Shown here piece after piece: positions 5,097 to 36,090 of a DNA stretch of 47,656 nucleotides. The DNA comes from Paramuribaculum sp. (GTDB lineage: Bacteria > Bacteroidota > Bacteroidia > Bacteroidales > Muribaculaceae). The stretch spans positions 1 through 47,656 of the forward strand of contig JAIDTT010000081.1 of assembly GCA_029060545.1 (NCBI GenBank). The letters run 5' to 3'. Each line of letters begins with the position of its first letter. Positions within the stretch are counted from its first letter, which is position 1. Below the pieces are notes generated by a model, which saw nothing but the letters and a program-made list of their open reading frames with translations, did not search any database and had not been told where the DNA came from. Made by a program: the position numbers and the translations under genes.

Positions 5097-6302
5097 ATGG
5101 CATCCATTAAAGTTAAGTTCAGACCTTCGAAGATTACGGATCGCGAAGGCTCAATCTATTATCAAATTATCCATGAGAGATGTGTGCGACACATCGCGTC
5201 GCGTTATCGCGTACTCCCGTCGGAGTGGTGCGATAGGCGAGCGACGGTCATTGCCGGTGCTACTACACCCGAGCGCGAACAGCATTTGCGTTCGATCCGC
5301 GAAGGGATACATTGCGATGTGGAGCGGCTGACTGTCATAATCCGCAAGTTCGACAGGAGTGGCAGGATTTATTCCATAGAAGATGTCGCCGAGGAGTTCA
5401 AGCGTTTTCGTGAGGAATATTCGCTCTTCAACTTTATGGAGCGGGTTATCGATAAGCTACGTGCCAACGGCAAAATACGCACATCCGAGACCTATACTGC
5501 TGCTCTAAGAAGTTTCCGGCATTTCAGGCAGGGGAGGGATATAATGCTCGACCGCCTCAGCACCGCCATAATGGAAGAATATGAGGCGTGGCACACCCGG
5601 CGTGGCATACAGCCCAATACCATATCATTCTACAACCGGATCCTGCGGGCCGTCTATAATCGGGCCGTCGAGGAGGAGGTTATCGAAAACCGATATCCAT
5701 TCCGTCATGTATATACGGGTGTCGACAAGACGGTGAAACGCGCGCTCCCGCTCTCGATAATAAGGAAAATCAACAACCTTGATCTGTCGGGAGTACCCGC
5801 CATGGCGTATGCCCGCGATATGTTTATGCTCAGTTTCATGCTGCGTGGGATGAGCTTCATCGATATGGCCTTTCTGCGAAAGTCAGATCTAAGAGGCGGC
5901 CGCCTGACCTATCGCCGGCGCAAGACCGGGCAGACACTTGTCGTGGCGTGGACCCCGGAAATGCAATGCATCGTTGACCGGTATCCACAAAACGCGATGG
6001 AGTATCTGCTGCCGATCATACGAAAGCCGGCTGAAAACCTCCATACCGTATACCGTAATATAGGCTACAACATCAATCACAATCTCCGAAAGATAGCCTA
6101 TGCAATAGGTCTCAGTGTGCCCTTCACTCTCTATGTAGCCCGACATAGCTGGGCATCAGTAGCCCGAGCCAAAGGAATACCGTTGAGCGTGATAAGCGAA
6201 GGTATGGGACACGATAGTGAAGCCACCACACAGATCTATCTCGCCAGCCTCGATGCCTCCGCCATCGACCGCGCCAATTCCCTCATCCTCCGCAGCCTTT
6301 AG
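5097..6302 (+). CDS. Tyrosine-type site-specific recombinase
   Basis: A 401-aa integrase of the Bacteroides phage-integrase-like type. It has an N-terminal arm-binding region (1-95), a SAM-like core-binding domain (about 105-210), and a catalytic domain with the first Arg in MLRGMSFIDM, a Lys in RRRKTGQ, the box VARHSWAS and the nucleophile Tyr in TQIYLASLD near the C terminus. The usual first His of the H-x-x-R box appears to be Tyr (LYVARH), as in many Bacteroides recombinases. It starts 103 bp after the preceding gene in the same direction. No att site, cargo junction or clear invertible promoter is visible nearby, so it could be a stranded integrase or a DNA invertase. The ATG follows an A/T-rich region without SD. 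Confidence 0.9.
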   Translation: MASIKVKFRPSKITDREGSIYYQIIHERCVRHIASRYRVLPSEWCDRRATVIAGATTPEREQHLRSIREGIHCDVERLTVIIRKFDRSGRIYSIEDVAEEFKRFREEYSLFNFMERVIDKLRANGKIRTSETYTAALRSFRHFRQGRDIMLDRLSTAIMEEYEAWHTRRGIQPNTISFYNRILRAVYNRAVEEEVIENRYPFRHVYTGVDKTVKRALPLSIIRKINNLDLSGVPAMAYARDMFMLSFMLRGMSFIDMAFLRKSDLRGGRLTYRRRKTGQTLVVAWTPEMQCIVDRYPQNAMEYLLPIIRKPAENLHTVYRNIGYNINHNLRKIAYAIGLSVPFTLYVARHSWASVARAKGIPLSVISEGMGHDSEATTQIYLASLDASAIDRANSLILRSL

Positions 6303-6315
6303 GTGGAGGGATGGG

Positions 6316-8433
6316 TTAGATCCAGTCGTTCCAGTGGTCGCACAGCGAGCGGACCATGTGGCCGATGGCGGTGTGGGGGTAGCGTTTGGTTATAGTCTTC
6401 AGATTGCCGAGGATGTACTGGGCTTTTGCACGAGCTTCATCGGTAGTCAGCATTGCCAGTGCTGCCTCCACTTCCTGATTGTATATCGCTTCGGTATGCT
6501 TATGACCCGTCGATGTGTTATAATCATAAAGAAATGCATATTTGCGCTTGGCAAAATCGTCGTCCCAGTCGTAACGGAGGTTAGGCGAGAATTTGCCGGG
6601 TATCACTCCTCTCCAATACTGTGTGAGTGCCCAGCACTCCTCAAATGAGTTGAAGCGGCCGATGGCGTACATCAAGCGTGCCATACCGCGATCGTCGGCC
6701 GTTTTGCCGCTTCGCATATCTTTCTGATAATCCAGCATCCGGCGTGCGAATGTGAGTTTGGCATTCTCCGACGATAGAGTTGGTTTTGCGCCGGCGGCAA
6801 ATTCATACTCCCATTCGTCATCTACCCTCCAGCGGCTCGGATAAATGACGAATGGCTCATATTGTAAATATCTGTATATATTCATAGTACGCAGGTATTC
6901 CGGGCTGACATCGGAGAGGTATAGCACTGCGCGAGCGTAGTTGCCTTCGCGCAGTGCTAACGTGCCGATTAATTCATAGTAATAGTCGGAGTCAGTACGG
7001 ATAGTATTGTGCAGGAAGTCGTTGAGCGGAGTCGATTTCATCATGCTGCTGTGGGCGGCGGCAAGTTGCGAGGAGTTGAGGCTGCCCATAAGTTGAAATG
7101 CCAGACCGCCATAATCCGTGGTGTTGCGTTTGTGCTCGATGGCCTTAAGCCAGTCGCTTGGTAATAGCAGACGCAGAAAGTCCATTATATTCCAGTTACA
7201 GCAGATATCTCCTTCCATAGCCAAAGGTTCTGGAGCCATGTTATCGGCATAGGCGCAGAGTGCAATAGCTGCGGCGTAGTCACCTTTTTTCCACAACTCC
7301 GGTACCCAATCCGCGTAGATTATGTTGCGTAACCGGCGTGTCCATTCTTGGGCATGAGGAGTATCAGGGTCGGCGGTGCATTTATCCTCGATCCATTGTA
7401 GATCACAGACCAGCGACCCGATTCGTCCGGAGTGAGCGTCAAGTTTCATCTTGTAGGCGTGGGCGAGGTCGGCGAGCTCCTCACATGAAAATCTTTGCTT
7501 CAATGCCCGCTGCATATAGCGGTCGGCAAGCCGGGTGTTGTGGCCGTATTCATTGTAATAGTAGGCAAGCAGATAGAGCCAGTCGCCACGGCCCGTGGTT
7601 TTCTTTCGCCGAACCATCTTTTGTGCAATCGGAACGATTTCGATGAGTTTGGCCGAGTCAGTGCAGTTGTGGCGTATATATTCCATAATCTGAGGCGCGT
7701 CGGGATTGAGTGTTGCCGTCAGAGCTACCGGATTGTCTGCTTTGATCGACCCGATGGCTCCGGCTTTGGCAAAGAGTGAATCGGCACGCCCTACTTCGCC
7801 GAGACGGCTCCAGCATCCGGCTACATATTTCGATGCCATACGTTTGAGCAGGTTGGAATCGGAAACGAGTGCAAATGCCGAATCGTAGTAGTTGATACAC
7901 TCCGAGTATGCGCGAGAGGCAAACATCGCTCTCACCGCTTGAAATGCGTAGCGGTCGCGGAGGCGCTCCCCGCTGTAGGCTTTGCAGCAGGCTATCTCTG
8001 CGTTGTATTCGCCGGTGGTGCTATGACCGTCTCTATTACGTGGAAAGTACCACGGCGATTTGGTTGATGCCCACTTCTCCTCGATAGCTTTGGCTACACA
8101 CATAAAATCGGCGATTTCATCGTCGCCATTATTATTAAGGTACGCGAAAAATGGATTTTCGCAATATGAGTAACTGCCGTTGACATAATTATTCCAGTCA
8201 CTGAGTGTGCTTGAATACACGGCTTCATTGATAGCGTCCAAGTCCATATCCTTGTATGTGACGGATTGCCATAGCCGAAGATTTTCCTCTCTATCGAAGT
8301 CGGTAGTGACATTGGTATTGAAGAATTCGGGTGTTGGGATGATAGGGAAGTATGGGCCGCAGGCGACGGCGCGATCAGCTACGGTGCTCAGGAGCACACT
8401 AATGGTCAGCAGAAAGAATATTCGAGATCTCAT
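6316..8433 (-). CDS. Large exported protein of unknown function, helical-repeat-like
   Basis: A 705-aa protein with an N-terminal signal peptide (hydrophobic core about 5-20, then AVACGPYF; the Cys could be a weak lipobox). The mature protein is rich in Trp, Tyr and Ala and has helical pairs that resemble TPR-like repeats (for example AGCWSRLGEVGRADSLFAKAG and LRKGNYARAV-like segments). The C-terminal third is compositionally well ordered and ends CDHWNDWI. I do not recognise a catalytic motif. It overlaps the upstream lipoprotein gene by 35 bp, so both come from one transcript that starts at the LytTR-site promoter near 9.5 kb. Probably periplasmic or outer-membrane-attached. It ends convergently with the integrase, 13 bp apart. 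Confidence 0.75.
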   Translation of the reverse strand: MRSRIFFLLTISVLLSTVADRAVACGPYFPIIPTPEFFNTNVTTDFDREENLRLWQSVTYKDMDLDAINEAVYSSTLSDWNNYVNGSYSYCENPFFAYLNNNGDDEIADFMCVAKAIEEKWASTKSPWYFPRNRDGHSTTGEYNAEIACCKAYSGERLRDRYAFQAVRAMFASRAYSECINYYDSAFALVSDSNLLKRMASKYVAGCWSRLGEVGRADSLFAKAGAIGSIKADNPVALTATLNPDAPQIMEYIRHNCTDSAKLIEIVPIAQKMVRRKKTTGRGDWLYLLAYYYNEYGHNTRLADRYMQRALKQRFSCEELADLAHAYKMKLDAHSGRIGSLVCDLQWIEDKCTADPDTPHAQEWTRRLRNIIYADWVPELWKKGDYAAAIALCAYADNMAPEPLAMEGDICCNWNIMDFLRLLLPSDWLKAIEHKRNTTDYGGLAFQLMGSLNSSQLAAAHSSMMKSTPLNDFLHNTIRTDSDYYYELIGTLALREGNYARAVLYLSDVSPEYLRTMNIYRYLQYEPFVIYPSRWRVDDEWEYEFAAGAKPTLSSENAKLTFARRMLDYQKDMRSGKTADDRGMARLMYAIGRFNSFEECWALTQYWRGVIPGKFSPNLRYDWDDDFAKRKYAFLYDYNTSTGHKHTEAIYNQEVEAALAMLTTDEARAKAQYILGNLKTITKRYPHTAIGHMVRSLCDHWNDWI

Positions 8434-9469
8434 CGGGCGTATAATTTGAAAGATTGCTTGTATCGAGGTGATAGAGTATGTTGGAATGAGGCTTGTCGGC
8501 GAGCCGTCGGTCGATCATCTCCTTTACGCGGATGATGTCGGTGTAGTCGGCTACTTCGGAGCGAATCATATCACCGGGCCAAATTATGATGTCGTTGTAC
8601 TGAATTTCATCCGTGGCAATATACCTGTTGGTGTGGCGGTACGAAAATCTGGTGGTGTCGGTAAGATCGAGGCCATTGAGCAGGCCGACGAACTGCCGCT
8701 GGCGGAAAAGCAGTTGCCAGTTATAAGTGGGGTAGGCTACGTCGAGGTGGATAGGATAGTCGGCAAGATGCTTGAGATACGGCTCCACATCGCGCACATC
8801 GATAATGGAATTATTGGTGTCGGGATCATTGAAACTGCCGGTGTTGTAGACCATGAGTACTCCGCGATCGACTGGAGGCACCTGACCCGACAGTTGATGC
8901 AGGCGTATGGTGGAACTTAGGCACCAGGGGAGTTGCTTACCGGCAATTACGGATTTTACCGAATCGCACAGGCGGAAATAGGACTGCTGAGTCGACGAAG
9001 TCCAGTCGCAATCAATCTGCAATTCAGCTACGTTGGGTATCCGGTAGTAGGAGCACATATTGCTTACACGGCTCACTATGTTGTTGGCCAGCATACCCTC
9101 ATTGTCGCTCATTGCTTTAAGGGCTTCCAGTGTGATATAGACCACGGGTACAAACTCGGTAGAGGCCAACGTATCAGCGAATAGAGCCACGGTGGCGTCG
9201 TCGATCTGCACCGAAGCATTAGGGTAAGTGGCATCTTCGGGGTGGTAGGCGTAGGGTTCCTGAGCCACATCGAACATCCGCAGATAGATGCGTCCGATGT
9301 TGTGACTGGCGAGAAATGCGAGGTCGATACTGTCGGGACTAAATACAGTCTTCCAATAGTAGACCGAATTCATTTCCTCGTGGGCAGGGCTTAGGGCCTC
9401 GGTCGAGGCAGCGCGGTCGCAGCATGAGTGGATGAACAGAAGCAGACAAGCGGAGATCAGATACTTCAT
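8399..9469 (-). CDS. Lipoprotein with TIM-barrel-like (DUF3142-like) domain
   Basis: A 356-aa protein with a lipoprotein signal (LLLFIHSCC, cysteines 16/17). The mature part has alternating strands and helices such as NIGRIYLRMFDVA, VPVVYITLEAL, VAELQIDCDWT, LPWCLSSTIR and GVLMVYNTG. These read like the successive beta strands of a TIM barrel with acidic residues at strand ends, similar to DUF3142 proteins that resemble glycoside hydrolases. The family match is inferred from pattern only. It is the first gene of a two-gene unit with the 705-aa exported protein (35-bp overlap). Its promoter carries the direct repeat described at 9536-9574, so it is a likely target of the LytTR regulator encoded 1 kb upstream. 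Confidence 0.7.
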   Translation of the reverse strand: MKYLISACLLLFIHSCCDRAASTEALSPAHEEMNSVYYWKTVFSPDSIDLAFLASHNIGRIYLRMFDVAQEPYAYHPEDATYPNASVQIDDATVALFADTLASTEFVPVVYITLEALKAMSDNEGMLANNIVSRVSNMCSYYRIPNVAELQIDCDWTSSTQQSYFRLCDSVKSVIAGKQLPWCLSSTIRLHQLSGQVPPVDRGVLMVYNTGSFNDPDTNNSIIDVRDVEPYLKHLADYPIHLDVAYPTYNWQLLFRQRQFVGLLNGLDLTDTTRFSYRHTNRYIATDEIQYNDIIIWPGDMIRSEVADYTDIIRVKEMIDRRLADKPHSNILYHLDTSNLSNYTPDEISNILSADH

Positions 9470-32651: not shown

Positions 32652-33467
32652 ATGAAGTTGACCGATAACCCGATTTGGATTGCGATACAATACATTTGTG
32701 TGTTGTTTCTAACTTTCTGTTTTGCAGGGCTAATAGTAAGCAATTTTTTATTCATGTGGCTTATTGTTATATTCAGTGGGCTGTTTATTCCGGCAGTGGT
32801 TGTTGCGTGTATCTCATTTATTAGGTCGCTAAGATGCGACAGCAGGCATAAGAAAGTACTGTTAATCTTGAATGTGGTCAATATACTTTTGTTTTTATTC
32901 TCGTTTTTCAATCCGTCCGGCAAATGTGATGCTGATATAATGGAAAACCACTACACCAAATATGGTGGACGAATGGAGCAGATATATCATAATCTTTATG
33001 ATAAAATGACTCCCGGGTGTTATGTACATATTGAATTTGAACATGGCGATGTTGCAATGTTCCATTTCTCAAACGGTAGTGGTGAGCGGGAATCCAACTG
33101 GGATCCGAGTGAAGAAAAGATAGATTCTTTGCTCACACTGAGCGGACTCGACAGAAAATCTTTAGCATGGCTGGAAAAAGAGTTGGATAAAATAGGCTGT
33201 ATTTCTATTTCTATGCGGGCAGTTCCGGGTAATCCTTTTTGTATTGGCTTCCGACGTATTGGAATGGGAATGTACTCTTTCTGGTTTTACGACCATCCTC
33301 TATCTCCTGAAGAACAGAACCGCATAAACGCTAATGAAAATCTAATTGTCTTTAATGATTCCACTGTCTTTGAATATGGCGGTGGGGCTATTGGTTCGCT
33401 GAATTTCCCAGGTAAGGAGGAATATCTGAGAAAGAGAAAACAGATACATAATGAAATTGACAGATAA
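32652..33467 (+). CDS. Membrane protein of unknown function
   Basis: A 271-aa protein with three hydrophobic segments (about 10-30, 33-56 and 68-84), then a soluble domain of about 185 residues with a beta-rich pattern (PGCYVHIEFEHGDVAMFHFSNGSGE, CISISMRAVPGNPFCIGFRR, GMYSFWFYDHPLS). No family is recognised. The first residues, MKLTDNPIWI, are nearly repeated by the truncated ORF that starts 17 bp before this stop codon, which shows a partial tandem duplication. The region is more A/T-rich than the housekeeping genes around it. Confidence 0.65.
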   Translation: MKLTDNPIWIAIQYICVLFLTFCFAGLIVSNFLFMWLIVIFSGLFIPAVVVACISFIRSLRCDSRHKKVLLILNVVNILLFLFSFFNPSGKCDADIMENHYTKYGGRMEQIYHNLYDKMTPGCYVHIEFEHGDVAMFHFSNGSGERESNWDPSEEKIDSLLTLSGLDRKSLAWLEKELDKIGCISISMRAVPGNPFCIGFRRIGMGMYSFWFYDHPLSPEEQNRINANENLIVFNDSTVFEYGGGAIGSLNFPGKEEYLRKRKQIHNEIDR

Positions 33468-33645
33468 AAGATTTTGGATATTTGAGGCATTTACCATTTT
33501 ATATGCTATGGTATTGATGTCTCTTGCGTTGATAATCCTTGATAAATTAGGCCCTTCTGTTCTCCCCTTAAGCCCCCAAACAAAACATCCAGTCTCACGC
33601 CCAAAACTGGGTGTGAAATTGGGCGTTTGTTGTCTAAAAACTTGA
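33451..33645 (+). pseudogene. Truncated duplicate of the preceding membrane protein gene
   Basis: The ORF starts MKLTDKRFWIFEAFTILYAMVLMSL, matching the start MKLTDNPIWIAIQYICVLFL of the 271-aa gene in position and character, but after about 30 residues (one membrane helix) the frame enters the tmRNA 3' flank and terminator (from about 33540) and encodes a Pro-rich tail unlikely to be native. It overlaps the parent gene's end by 17 bp. It is best read as the 5' remnant of a second paralogue cut off next to ssrA. Confidence 0.5.
33597..33626 (-). terminator. Hairpin downstream of tmRNA
   Basis: ACGCCCAA (33597-33604) pairs with TTGGGCGT (33619-33626), with a 14-nt loop that can pair internally (CCCAG/CTGGG-like). 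It lies 36 nt after the tmRNA 3' end on the minus strand and is followed by a moderately T-rich stretch. Confidence 0.6.
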
Positions 33646-33661
33646 TTATCAAGTCTAATTG

Positions 33662-34061
33662 TGGAGCTGGAGGGGTTCGAACCCTCGTCCAAACGTGGAA
33701 CCAATAAGCTTTCTACATGCTTAGTTGCAACTTGGTTTTCGTGTATCGACAGGCAAGCAACAACCAATCGATGCCTTATCCTCTAAAGTTTCGGAGTCAT
33801 CGCGAGGCTTCCCGACTCCTATTTCCGATTTACCAGCACCGCCTGATCGATTAGCCTCGGAAAAAATACGGCAATCGGGCGATGTCTTGTCGGTGCAACT
33901 GTTGCGCCGATTAAGCTAATCTACTGTACTTCGATTAAGCAGCAAGAGCGTAGTTATTTTCGCCATTTAAATTGTCGACGTCGGAGATTATAGAGCGCCT
34001 TCCGTCATGGCTCTGCATGCTTACATACCGCCTCTACACGCTGTCAAAGCCAGTCAGCCCC
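33662..34061 (-). ncRNA. ssrA: tmRNA (transfer-messenger RNA)
   Basis: A one-piece tmRNA of about 400 nt. The 5' end GGGGCTGACTGGCTTTGACA (34061-34042) pairs through GGGGCTG with CAGCTCC at the 3' end. The T-arm GAGGGTTCGAACCCTC (about 33671-33690) is canonical. The tag reading frame, GGC GAA AAT AAC TAC GCT CTT GCT GCT TAA (33964-33935), gives GENNYALAA, a Bacteroidetes-type tag. CCA is not encoded in full (the genome reads CAA after the discriminator A), so the tail must be added. It frees stalled ribosomes and marks the product for proteolysis. A promoter box lies 16 nt upstream of the mature 5' end. Confidence 0.97.
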
Positions 34062-34076
34062 GAGTGGATGTGAATA

Positions 34077-34107
34077 CAAAGTTACAGAATTTATTTCAAA
34101 TCCGAAA
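34077..34107 (-). promoter_or_regulatory. tmRNA promoter
   Basis: On the minus strand, TTTC (34107-34104), 19 nt and TAACTTTG (34084-34077), with a predicted start about 12 nt before the mature tmRNA. The upstream element lies inside the 32-bp repeat that copies the end of the glycosyltransferase gene. Confidence 0.6.
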
Positions 34108-34120
34108 ATTTTTTGCGTCC
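34089..34120. repeat. 32-bp direct repeat, tmRNA-side copy
   Basis: Identical to 35075-35106 in 31 of 32 positions. Read on the minus strand it encodes the last codons of the glycosyltransferase (GRKKFSDLK-stop), although that gene ends about 950 bp away, so this copy is a duplicated gene end. It also supplies the upstream part of the tmRNA promoter. Confidence 0.85.
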
Positions 34121-34456
34121 ACATCCGTTACATCTGTCGTGTAAAAATATGTCGAATCTGTTGTAAAGCATATTAGTGCAATTTTTAGACCATATTCTGG
34201 TAATCAATATCTGCCATATACTTACGACTTTGAGTCATCTTTAATGGATAAAGATGATTGGGAATGTCAATTCGTATCTAACGTCCTAACCAAAATGTAA
34301 GCAATGAGCGAGACCATAATCTCTCTCTTTTTGTATCTTTGCGTTGACAAACAAGTGTAACTTTGTATGTAATTACCTTAATACTGGCGCAAACCATGGC
34401 CCAAATGCTCCCAACGGGGCGTTTCCTGGTTGCTCGCTCATACCGAGTTTTAGATA
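34121..34456. other. Non-coding part of the repeat-bounded segment
   Basis: An A/T-rich stretch with no convincing gene. It contains two -7-like boxes on the plus strand (TATCTTTG 34334-34341, TAACTTTG 34358-34365) and a 9-bp inverted repeat (ATGAGCGAG at 34304-34312, CTCGCTCAT at 34433-34441) enclosing about 140 bp. The 66-aa minus-strand ORF at 34278-34478 is basic and Arg/Lys-rich, with no family match that I recognise, and I do not call it. Confidence 0.4.
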
Positions 34457-35020
34457 ATGAAAAATTTAGTAATATCAATTATTAACCTTCTTCTGTCCGC
34501 ATTGAATGTTAATGCTCAACCGATGAGGTCTGATGCTATCTATGATGAACAACAGTTATGGATACAATCTCTGCTGAGTGAGCCTATTGGTGGTGACTAT
34601 TTGTTTTATTGCACTGGACACAATGGGAGGATTTGGTCGTTAGTATCAGTAGATTCAACTGGTATAAAGCTCTATAATGGTACAACAAGTCAATATACGA
34701 AATGCGACGAACCGACTTTGATTGATACACTTTCATTTATTAATGATAATATTCAGACAATTATATGGGGAATTGATTCTTTAGTAAAATTCAAGCATTT
34801 ATTAAAGCCGATTGAAAATAGGACGTATAATCCGATATATAATCAATTATATCTTATAAAAGATAACCGCATAGTTTTCAGTTATAACGATGCCATAGAT
34901 TATTATTCCGAAACTGATAGCTCAGAATTTAATCATAACCTAAATAAGCTTACTTTTCTAATGTTATGGTTGGCGGCACCATCGCTACGCACATTCATAC
35001 CAATTCCCTCTGACACATAA
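34457..35020 (+). CDS. Secreted protein of unknown function inside the repeat-bounded segment
   Basis: A 187-aa protein with a signal peptide (MKNLVISIINLLLSALNVNAQ). The mature part is polar, beta-rich and Asn/Asp/Tyr-rich (GGDYLFYCTGHNGRIWSLVSVD, NPIYNQLYLIKDNRIVFSYND). I do not recognise a family. The codon use is markedly more A/T-rich than in the flanking housekeeping genes, which fits recent acquisition. It is the only plausible gene between the two 32-bp direct repeats and lies on the strand opposite to tmRNA and the glycosyltransferase. The stop codon sits in the loop of a hairpin. Confidence 0.65.
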   Translation: MKNLVISIINLLLSALNVNAQPMRSDAIYDEQQLWIQSLLSEPIGGDYLFYCTGHNGRIWSLVSVDSTGIKLYNGTTSQYTKCDEPTLIDTLSFINDNIQTIIWGIDSLVKFKHLLKPIENRTYNPIYNQLYLIKDNRIVFSYNDAIDYYSETDSSEFNHNLNKLTFLMLWLAAPSLRTFIPIPSDT

Positions 35021-35029
35021 TTGTCAGAG
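35008..35029 (+). terminator. Hairpin at the end of the secreted protein gene
   Basis: CTCTGACA (35008-35015) pairs with TGTCAGAG (35022-35029); the 6-nt loop contains the stop codon. There is no clean T-tract. Confidence 0.5.
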
Positions 35030-35074
35030 AGAATATATCTCTATATCATAAGGATAAAGTTGGATAATAAAGAT

Positions 35075-35106
35075 ATTTATTTCAGATCCGAAAATTTTTT
35101 GCGTCC
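35075..35106. repeat. 32-bp direct repeat, glycosyltransferase-side copy
   Basis: The original copy: on the minus strand it is the real 3' end of the glycosyltransferase gene, including its stop codon (35079-35077). One mismatch to 34089-34120. The two copies bound a 954-bp segment (34121-35074). Confidence 0.85.
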
Positions 35107-36090
35107 GCGAAGGTAATATTGTATCAGCAGATTGGGTCGGCGAGGCCTGGTGTGGAGTAGATCGGACGTTGCCGATTCTATGCCTTCGTAGGCTTTCTTC
35201 ATCCTCCGGTATTCGCGATGGGCGCGCAAGATAGCTCCGGCGTGCCCCCACTTTCCTTTGGCTACAAACTGGGCCCAGGCCAGCGTGTCGAGCAATCGGC
35301 GCCGAAGCAGGGTAGCGGTGCGTGTGCGGCCATGAGGCAGGTTCTTATACAGCATCAGCAGGGAGTTGCGGAAGTTGAGCATCGTCTTCCGTGGATTCGA
35401 TGCATCGAGGCTCGCACCACCGAGATGATATACGTGCGATTGCGGCACGGCGGCTATCCTGTAGCCGAGCCGCTGCATTCGCCAGCATAAGTCAATCTCC
35501 TCCATATGAGCGAAAAAGGCTTCGTCAAGTCCGCCCGCCTTCCGGTAAGCTTCTACTGATACCATCATAGCGGCACCTGTAGCCCAGAATAGATCGTCGA
35601 CAGCGGTGTCGTATTGCCCGCCATCCGTTTCCACTGAGTCCATAATTCGGCCGCGGCAATACGGGTAGCCGTTACGGTCGATATATCCGCCTGCGGCCCC
35701 TGCGTATTCAAACTTCGTGCGGTCGCGGTACGATAGGATTTTCGGCTGACAGGCTCCGCATAGCGGATTGCTCTTCATATATTCGAGCAGGGGAGTGACC
35801 CAGTCGGAATCTACCGCCACGTCGGAGTTGAGCAGTACGGCGTATGGTGTATCACACATATCCAATGCTTTATTGTAGCCGCCGGCAAAACCGTAGTTCT
35901 GATCGAAAGCCCACACTTCCACCCGTGGAAACTCTTCGCGCAATACCTTCAGAGAATCATCAGTGCTACCGTTGTCGGCTACTATCACCTTGGCTGTGTC
36001 GGCCGGAGTATATTCCACTACCGATGGTAGAAACTCGCGCAGCAGTTTCTCGCCGTTCCAGTTCAGTATTATTACGCTTACTTCTTTCAT
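35077..36090 (-). CDS. Family 2 glycosyltransferase
   Basis: A 337-aa GT-A fold enzyme. It starts VSVIILNWNGEKLLREFLPSV, has the nucleotide-binding VIVADNGSTDDSLKVL, the metal-binding AVLLNSDVAVD (D-x-D type region near 93-98), and the acceptor-site motif MEEIDLCWRMQRLGYR. The C-terminal part (about 240-337) is basic and helical. It most resembles rhamnosyl- or other sugar transferases of surface polysaccharide synthesis (the WbbL-like group). It overlaps mtaB by 4 bp (ATGA). Its last 10 codons are duplicated near ssrA. Confidence 0.92.
   Translation of the reverse strand: MKEVSVIILNWNGEKLLREFLPSVVEYTPADTAKVIVADNGSTDDSLKVLREEFPRVEVWAFDQNYGFAGGYNKALDMCDTPYAVLLNSDVAVDSDWVTPLLEYMKSNPLCGACQPKILSYRDRTKFEYAGAAGGYIDRNGYPYCRGRIMDSVETDGGQYDTAVDDLFWATGAAMMVSVEAYRKAGGLDEAFFAHMEEIDLCWRMQRLGYRIAAVPQSHVYHLGGASLDASNPRKTMLNFRNSLLMLYKNLPHGRTRTATLLRRRLLDTLAWAQFVAKGKWGHAGAILRAHREYRRMKKAYEGIESATSDLLHTRPRRPNLLIQYYLRGRKKFSDLK

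What the first reader, a model, noticed from the sequence alone, without database searches (positions are those of the whole stretch)
34089..35106. A 954-bp A/T-rich segment bounded by 32-bp direct repeats that duplicates the end of a glycosyltransferase gene next to the tmRNA promoter
Positions 34089-34120 and 35075-35106 match in 31 of 32 bases. The right copy is the true end of the glycosyltransferase gene; the left copy encodes the same last codons and stop but has no gene attached. It covers the upstream part of the tmRNA promoter (34077-34107). So in the simple ancestral state the glycosyltransferase would end directly at the tmRNA promoter, and a segment carrying one secreted-protein gene was added with duplication of the junction, restoring both the gene end and the promoter. 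This is like attL/attR formation, but at a gene 3' end/promoter border, with no recombinase inside.
Basis: partly seen in the sequence, partly recalled or inferred. Interest (0 to 1): 0.72.

Follow-up and report, generated by a model that had tools for sequence, protein, structure and literature searches.

The report
Orphan immunity gene inserted beside ssrA
A gut bacterium carries the leftover of a bacterial weapon-and-antidote gene set, with only the predicted antidote intact, inserted where a sugar-transferase gene overlaps the promoter of the ribosome-rescue RNA gene; the insertion copied that overlap, so both neighbours keep their ends.

Summary
The 32-bp repeats match 31/32 and are the only copies in the genome. 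A sister species (G016) is an empty site: one copy, with the glycosyltransferase ending directly in the tmRNA promoter. The joined window flanks align to it at 78% over 520 bp.

The insert is not just "one secreted gene". It is the rump of a three-gene cluster found intact in other Muribaculaceae: A (secreted, unknown), B (signal peptide, Rhs-core-end motif, HExxH domain, toxin-like) and C (predicted periplasmic immunity protein). The window keeps about 50 codons of A, the last 27 of B, and intact C.

Two other loci (G222, shared with its sister G191; G296) have A-B-C clusters between direct repeats that copy the 3' end of the convergent neighbour gene (71 and ~130 bp). The repeats share no core and no recombinase lies inside, so attL/attR is not supported. 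The pattern matches "insertion with long target duplication", known for restriction-modification systems. In G191 A and B are also lost and A's start is fused to C, a parallel orphan antidote.

Most likely: a toxin-immunity module inserted with target duplication, reduced to its immunity gene. Immunity function and DNA-joining mechanism are inferred.

The parts
33661..34061 (-). tmRNA gene ssrA (tag GENNYALAA)
   Evidence: ARAGORN
34077..34107 (-). predicted tmRNA promoter: -7 box TAACTTTG (34077-34084) outside the repeat, -33 element TTTC (34104-34107) inside the left copy, spacer 19
   Evidence: sequence; G016 has TTTC-N19-TATATTTG at the same place
34089..34120 (.). left copy of the 32-bp direct repeat (duplicated glycosyltransferase 3' end / tmRNA promoter upstream half)
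34145..34297 (+). fragment of gene A (about codons 91-142 of a ~343-codon secreted protein); DNA-level homology clear from 34182 to 34288
34334..34365 (+). two -7-like boxes (TATCTTTG 34334-34341, TAACTTTG 34358-34365) that could drive the immunity gene
   Evidence: prediction only
34374..34457 (+). last ~27 codons and stop of gene B (Rhs-tip / HExxH toxin-like protein); its TAA overlaps the ATG of C by one base, as in the intact cluster of G072
34457..35020 (+). gene C: intact 187-aa secreted protein, predicted orphan immunity protein
35075..35106 (.). right copy of the 32-bp direct repeat, true end of the glycosyltransferase gene
35077..36090 (-). glycosyltransferase family 2 gene

Best explanation
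The 954-bp segment is the remnant of a patchily distributed A-B-C polymorphic toxin/immunity cluster that inserted, against the direction of its neighbours, at the overlap of a glycosyltransferase 3' end and the tmRNA promoter. The insertion made a long target duplication (32 bp here). Shown: the empty site in a sister species, the identity and order of the A, B and C pieces, and two other loci where A-B-C clusters sit between long duplications of the neighbour's 3' end. Inferred: C works as an orphan immunity protein in the periplasm against B-type toxins of competitors, which is why it alone stays intact. Also inferred: the DNA was joined by a non-site-specific process (staggered-break fill-in or illegitimate recombination, giving the pattern known for restriction-modification units) rather than by an integrase. 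At this particular site only an insertion that duplicated the overlap could leave both ssrA and the glycosyltransferase working, so selection would pick that product.
For: Empty site: in G016 the glycosyltransferase (79% aa identity) ends about 32 bp from the tmRNA with one repeat copy; the joined window flanks align to it at 78% over 520 bp. Polarity: the left and right copies differ at 1/32, but each differs from G016 at 8-9/32, so the duplication is younger than the species split, barring gene conversion. Module identity: C is 51% and 48% identical to proteins in G072 and G286 that follow directly on gene B with the same TAATG overlap; the B tail and A fragment lie upstream in the same order. 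B variants share a signal peptide and an Rhs-core-end motif but have different C-termini, all nine aligned HExxH versions keep GHEIxGHGR, and in G286 a displaced B tail plus second C follow the intact pair. Other sites: G222 71-bp repeat with the sua5-like 3' end, retained in sister G191; G296 ~130-bp repeat with a glycosidase 3' end. 3 of 20 tested modules have such repeats, against 1 of 275 control positions. Parallel reduction: G191 lost A and B, with A's first codons fused to C; G033:C7 keeps a few B codons plus C. Precedent: restriction-modification units insert with long, variable target duplications (PMC3874152; PMC3031569).
Against: Only one clean empty site exists (G016, a 70%-complete MAG), and only two genomes share the glycosyltransferase-tmRNA junction. 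Most A-B-C or orphan-C loci (16 of 20) show no flanking repeat now and one (G072) only dispersed repeats, so long duplication is not shown to be how the cluster usually inserts. C matches no curated family in Pfam, NCBIfam or PADLOC above cut-off and no solved fold convincingly, so 'immunity' rests on gene position and predicted export. The Rhs motif in B is below the curated cut-off (19.9 against 32.5 bits). All data are MAG-type assemblies.
Confidence: 0.66

Rival explanations
1. Site-specific integration: a tyrosine-recombinase island used the 32-mer as attachment core (attL/attR) and later lost its integrase and most cargo.
For: A 32-bp near-identical repeat beside a tmRNA gene resembles att sites; the window encodes one tyrosine integrase at 5097-6302; rAID immunity arrays carry such a recombinase (PMC12247911).
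Against: The site is the tmRNA 5' side and a protein gene end, not an RNA-gene 3' end. Repeats around related clusters share no core and range from 32 to ~130 bp. No recombinase was seen in the cluster neighbourhoods inspected. The window integrase is about 28 kb away.
Confidence: 0.12
2. Homology-assisted illegitimate recombination: DNA from a relative carrying the module next to the same glycosyltransferase recombined at the homologous gene end on one side and was joined illegitimately on the other, duplicating a short stretch.
For: Gives variable-length duplications of one neighbour's 3' end, which fits 32, 71 and ~130 bp.
Against: Needs a donor already carrying the module at the same gene; none was found in 34 genus genomes. 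It only moves the origin of the insertion to another strain.
Confidence: 0.17
3. Ancestral presence: the module was there before the split and G016 lost it by deletion between the repeats, leaving one copy.
For: Deletion between short direct repeats gives the same single-copy junction (pattern described in PMC3119063).
Against: Left and right copies differ at 1/32 but differ from G016 at 8-9/32, so they coalesce after the split unless gene conversion kept them alike. Gene conversion seems to have happened in G191, so this is not excluded.
Confidence: 0.12
4. Assembly artefact or chance repeat.
For: The genomes are draft assemblies; repeats are classic misassembly points.
Against: The segment lies inside a 95-kb contig, the pieces make a coherent cluster, and the two other repeat loci are in independent genomes, one of them shared by two species.
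Confidence: 0.03

Closest known systems
Insertion with long target duplication of restriction-modification systems (Nobusato et al. 2000; Furuta et al. 2010, as cited in PMC3874152 and PMC3031569)
   Same: Small self-contained conflict module without recombinase, inserted with a long and variable duplication of the target, single copy at the empty site.
   Different: Cargo is a secreted toxin/immunity-type cluster reduced to its immunity gene, not a restriction-modification system; host is Muribaculaceae; the duplications here are the 3' end of a convergent neighbour in all three loci.
Polymorphic toxin systems / orphan Rhs-CT-immunity pairs (PMC3482391, PMC7043789; abstracts only)
   Same: Constant N-terminus, variable C-terminal toxin, immunity gene directly downstream, displaced tails and extra immunity genes behind it.
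   Different: B carries only the end of an Rhs core behind its own signal peptide and is preceded by an uncharacterised secreted partner A; no known family for A or C.
Acquired interbacterial defence (AID) and recombinase-associated AID (rAID) of Bacteroidales (PMC12247911)
   Same: A+T-rich orphan immunity gene without its effector in a Bacteroidales genome.
   Different: Single gene, not an array; no tyrosine recombinase; remnants of the effector operon still attached.
Integrase-mediated genomic islands at tmRNA genes
   Same: Direct repeats at a tmRNA-adjacent junction (general knowledge).
   Different: 5' promoter side instead of the 3' end, no integrase, no common core among related insertions.

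Membership tests
Insertion with long target duplication | empty site with a single copy of the duplicated sequence | tested here: met
   G016: one copy, glycosyltransferase directly at tmRNA promoter; joined flanks align 78% over 520 bp
Insertion with long target duplication | long, variable duplications not sharing a core between sites | tested here: met
   32 bp (window), 71 bp (G222), ~130 bp (G296), no common core seen
Insertion with long target duplication | no transposase or integrase in the inserted unit | tested here: met
   no recombinase-like ORF in the segment or in the clusters inspected by ORF listing
Insertion with long target duplication | movement observed or strains polymorphic within a species | not testable with these tools
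   only one genome per species is held
Tyrosine-recombinase island (attL/attR) | integrase gene in the element | tested here: not met
   no integrase between the repeats or in related clusters inspected; nearest found is at 5097-6302
Tyrosine-recombinase island (attL/attR) | same attachment core used at different insertions of the element | tested here: not met
   repeats at three loci are unrelated in sequence
Polymorphic toxin / immunity system | constant N-terminus with exchangeable C-terminal domains | tested here: met
   B variants share residues 1-45 and differ after; type D and HExxH versions
Polymorphic toxin / immunity system | Rhs or other trafficking motif | tested here: inconclusive
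   TIGR03696 Rhs core end at E 8e-4 but below the curated cut-off
Polymorphic toxin / immunity system | toxin kills, immunity protein protects | not testable with these tools
   needs expression and competition assays
rAID | tyrosine recombinase plus array of two or more co-oriented low-GC immunity genes | tested here: not met
   single intact gene of 33% G+C and no recombinase (definition from PMC12247911)
Orphan immunity gene | cognate effector absent from the genome | tested here: inconclusive
   A and C have no further copy in G000, 98.6% complete; B was not searched separately in G000

The most novel reading that the evidence does not exclude
Secreted A-B-C toxin/immunity clusters of Bacteroidales are recombinase-free mobile units that spread by insertion with long target duplication at 3' ends of genes, and repeatedly shed their toxin genes to leave single orphan immunity genes. 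This would extend a movement mode known for restriction-modification systems to interbacterial weapons.
Probability: 0.3. Interest if true: 0.66.

Novelty: new variant of a known kind. Interest (0 to 1): 0.47.

Why it matters
Orphan immunity genes influence who survives in the gut, and how such genes are acquired is open (PMC12247911 calls the mechanism of rAID biogenesis an area of active research). Here the empty site, the intact parent cluster and two parallel reductions are all visible, so one route (insert the whole weapon cluster, then lose toxin and partner) can be tested directly. It also shows how an insertion can land on a gene end overlapping the ssrA promoter without breaking either.

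Tried and rejected
Relatives of C in viral contigs, phages and plasmids: none, so no phage or plasmid carrier is indicated. tmRNA loci of the genus relatives with enough flank: none but G016 has the glycosyltransferase next to ssrA. The segment itself is in no other of 34 genus genomes. Empty-site test for the G222/G191 insertion: sua5-like and tryptophanase-like genes were not found adjacent in other genus members, so no clean empty site. Empty-site test for G296: the nearest relative G154 has a different downstream region. The 46-bp repeat near the G315 cluster is a palindromic element, not a duplication of the junction; the long repeats around the G072 cluster look like G+C-rich interspersed repeats. 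Idea that gene A's own coding sequence matches the 32-mer (microhomology): the A frame can be read through the left copy, but the DNA of 19 relatives shows no convincing match there. Structure of C: AlphaFold2 mean pLDDT 81, but no reliable relative (Foldseek best E 0.02; VIA Z at most 5.8). Structure of B: poor model, not interpreted. PDB sequence searches: nothing significant.

Full report
What is there. The two 32-bp stretches at 34089-34120 and 35075-35106 match in 31 of 32 bases and are the only such sites in the genome, even with 3 mismatches allowed. The right copy is the end of a family-2 glycosyltransferase gene on the minus strand. The left copy lies just upstream of the tmRNA gene (33661-34061, minus). 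The tmRNA promoter, read by the usual Bacteroidetes consensus (my own knowledge), has its -7 box TAACTTTG at 34077-34084, outside the repeat, and its -33 element inside it. The segment between the repeats has 34.5% G+C, the glycosyltransferase 54%.

The empty site. Of the genus genomes searched with the tmRNA region, only one, G016, has the glycosyltransferase beside the tmRNA. [quoted passage not shown] Joining the two window flanks in a script gives a sequence that aligns to G016 without a break, 78% over 520 bp. So the duplication and the 954-bp segment were added together to a junction like that of G016. The two copies differ from each other at 1 of 32 positions and from G016 at 8 and 9, which places the duplication after the split of the two species unless gene conversion has kept the copies alike.

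What was inserted. The intact gene C (34457-35020) encodes a 187-residue protein with a signal-peptide-like start (sequence). Relatives occur in 24 of 397 genomes of the family (this count includes the window's own genome). In G072 and G286 the relative is the third gene of a cluster: A (343 aa, secreted), B (about 269 aa) and C, with the stop of B overlapping the start of C as TAATG. The window shows the same overlap. Upstream of C the window keeps the last 27 codons of B (70% identical, E 6e-6) and, before that, about 50 codons of A (54-75% identity to intact A proteins, best E 5e-13). The order A-B-C is kept. The segment is therefore the rump of such a cluster, not a single-gene cargo.

What the cluster looks like. 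B starts with a signal peptide and 'SPYSYCGGDPVNCVDPTG', which resembles the end of the Rhs core (TIGR03696, E 8e-4, below its curated cut-off). Its C-terminal part varies between genomes: one type has an invariant HExxH motif in nine aligned members, another is unrelated. Fragments of B tails with further C-like genes follow some intact pairs. These are the usual marks of polymorphic toxin loci with displaced cassettes (general knowledge; see PMC3482391, abstract). A and C match no curated family. The C model (pLDDT 81) has no reliable solved relative. 'Immunity protein' for C is thus inferred from its place behind B, its predicted export and its presence in multiple paralogs.

Other insertions of the same cluster. 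In G222 the A-B-C cluster lies between a sua5-like gene (3' end towards C) and a tryptophanase-like gene start, both on the strand opposite to the cluster, and the end of the sua5-like gene is repeated (71 bp, 85%) on the far side. Sister species G191 has the insertion at the same site with both repeats (across a contig break), but A and B are gone and the first codons of A run straight into C. In G296 the cluster lies between a glycosidase 3' end and the start of another gene (SusC-like by my reading), again opposite in direction, with a duplicated stretch of about 130 bp including a terminator-like hairpin, decayed in the far copy. Of 20 modules tested, three show such a duplication (a fourth lies among dispersed repeats), while 1 of 275 control positions gave a comparable match. 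The three repeats have different lengths and no common sequence.

How it most likely came about. A known pattern fits: restriction-modification units insert, without any transposase, with long and variable target duplications of the order of 100 bp (PMC3874152; PMC3031569; PMC1643837). The A-B-C cluster would be a second kind of conflict module showing the pattern. The DNA-joining step is not shown by any of the data here; staggered-break fill-in and homology-assisted illegitimate recombination are both open. At the window's site the glycosyltransferase end and the ssrA promoter overlap, so an insertion without duplication would have broken one of them; selection alone can explain why the surviving insertion is the duplicating kind. 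Before or after insertion, A and B were lost and C was kept, as in G191 and, with a few B codons left, in G033:C7. Keeping an immunity gene against toxins that neighbours still carry is the published reading for orphan immunity genes in gut Bacteroidales (PMC12247911); for this gene it is an inference.

What is not shown. No strain-level polymorphism could be examined because one genome per species is held. No function of A, B or C was tested. The cluster's usual way of inserting is not settled, since most loci show no repeat today; old non-coding copies would decay, but absence is also compatible with another mode.

Verdict. Observation confirmed; insertion with duplication supported; the attL/attR reading not supported; the cargo re-identified as a predicted orphan immunity gene with remnants of its toxin operon.

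Noticed in passing
L276 / L303 (G191:C41 and C68): A and B deleted so that the start and signal-peptide codons of A are fused to immunity gene C, between the same duplicated repeats as in G222; the contig break falls exactly in the left repeat.
   Followed up: yes
L176 (G033:C7:121-760): Another orphan C gene, preceded only by a short B-tail remnant, right after what looks like a peptide-chain-release-factor-3 gene.
   Followed up: partly
window 5097-6302: Tyrosine integrase (Arm-DNA-bind_5, Phage_int_SAM_5) next to large minus-strand genes without families (6316-9469); could be an invertible surface-protein locus.
   Followed up: no
window 32652-33590: 271-aa ORF without a family and an overlapping, apparently truncated ORF starting near 33450, directly downstream of the tmRNA 3' end; possibly another remnant of an inserted element.
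   Followed up: no
L348 (G455:C1, 1055-6569): Array of duplicated Rhs-tip toxin-like genes and several paralogous small secreted proteins behind a gene A relative, outside the Muribaculaceae.
   Followed up: partly
L174 3521-3983 and 8237-8668 (G072:C4): G+C-rich interspersed repeats of up to 370 bp (about 91%) on both sides of the A-B-C cluster.
   Followed up: no
L346 6838-8636 (G652): Three tandem near-identical 186-codon genes between two gene A relatives.
   Followed up: no
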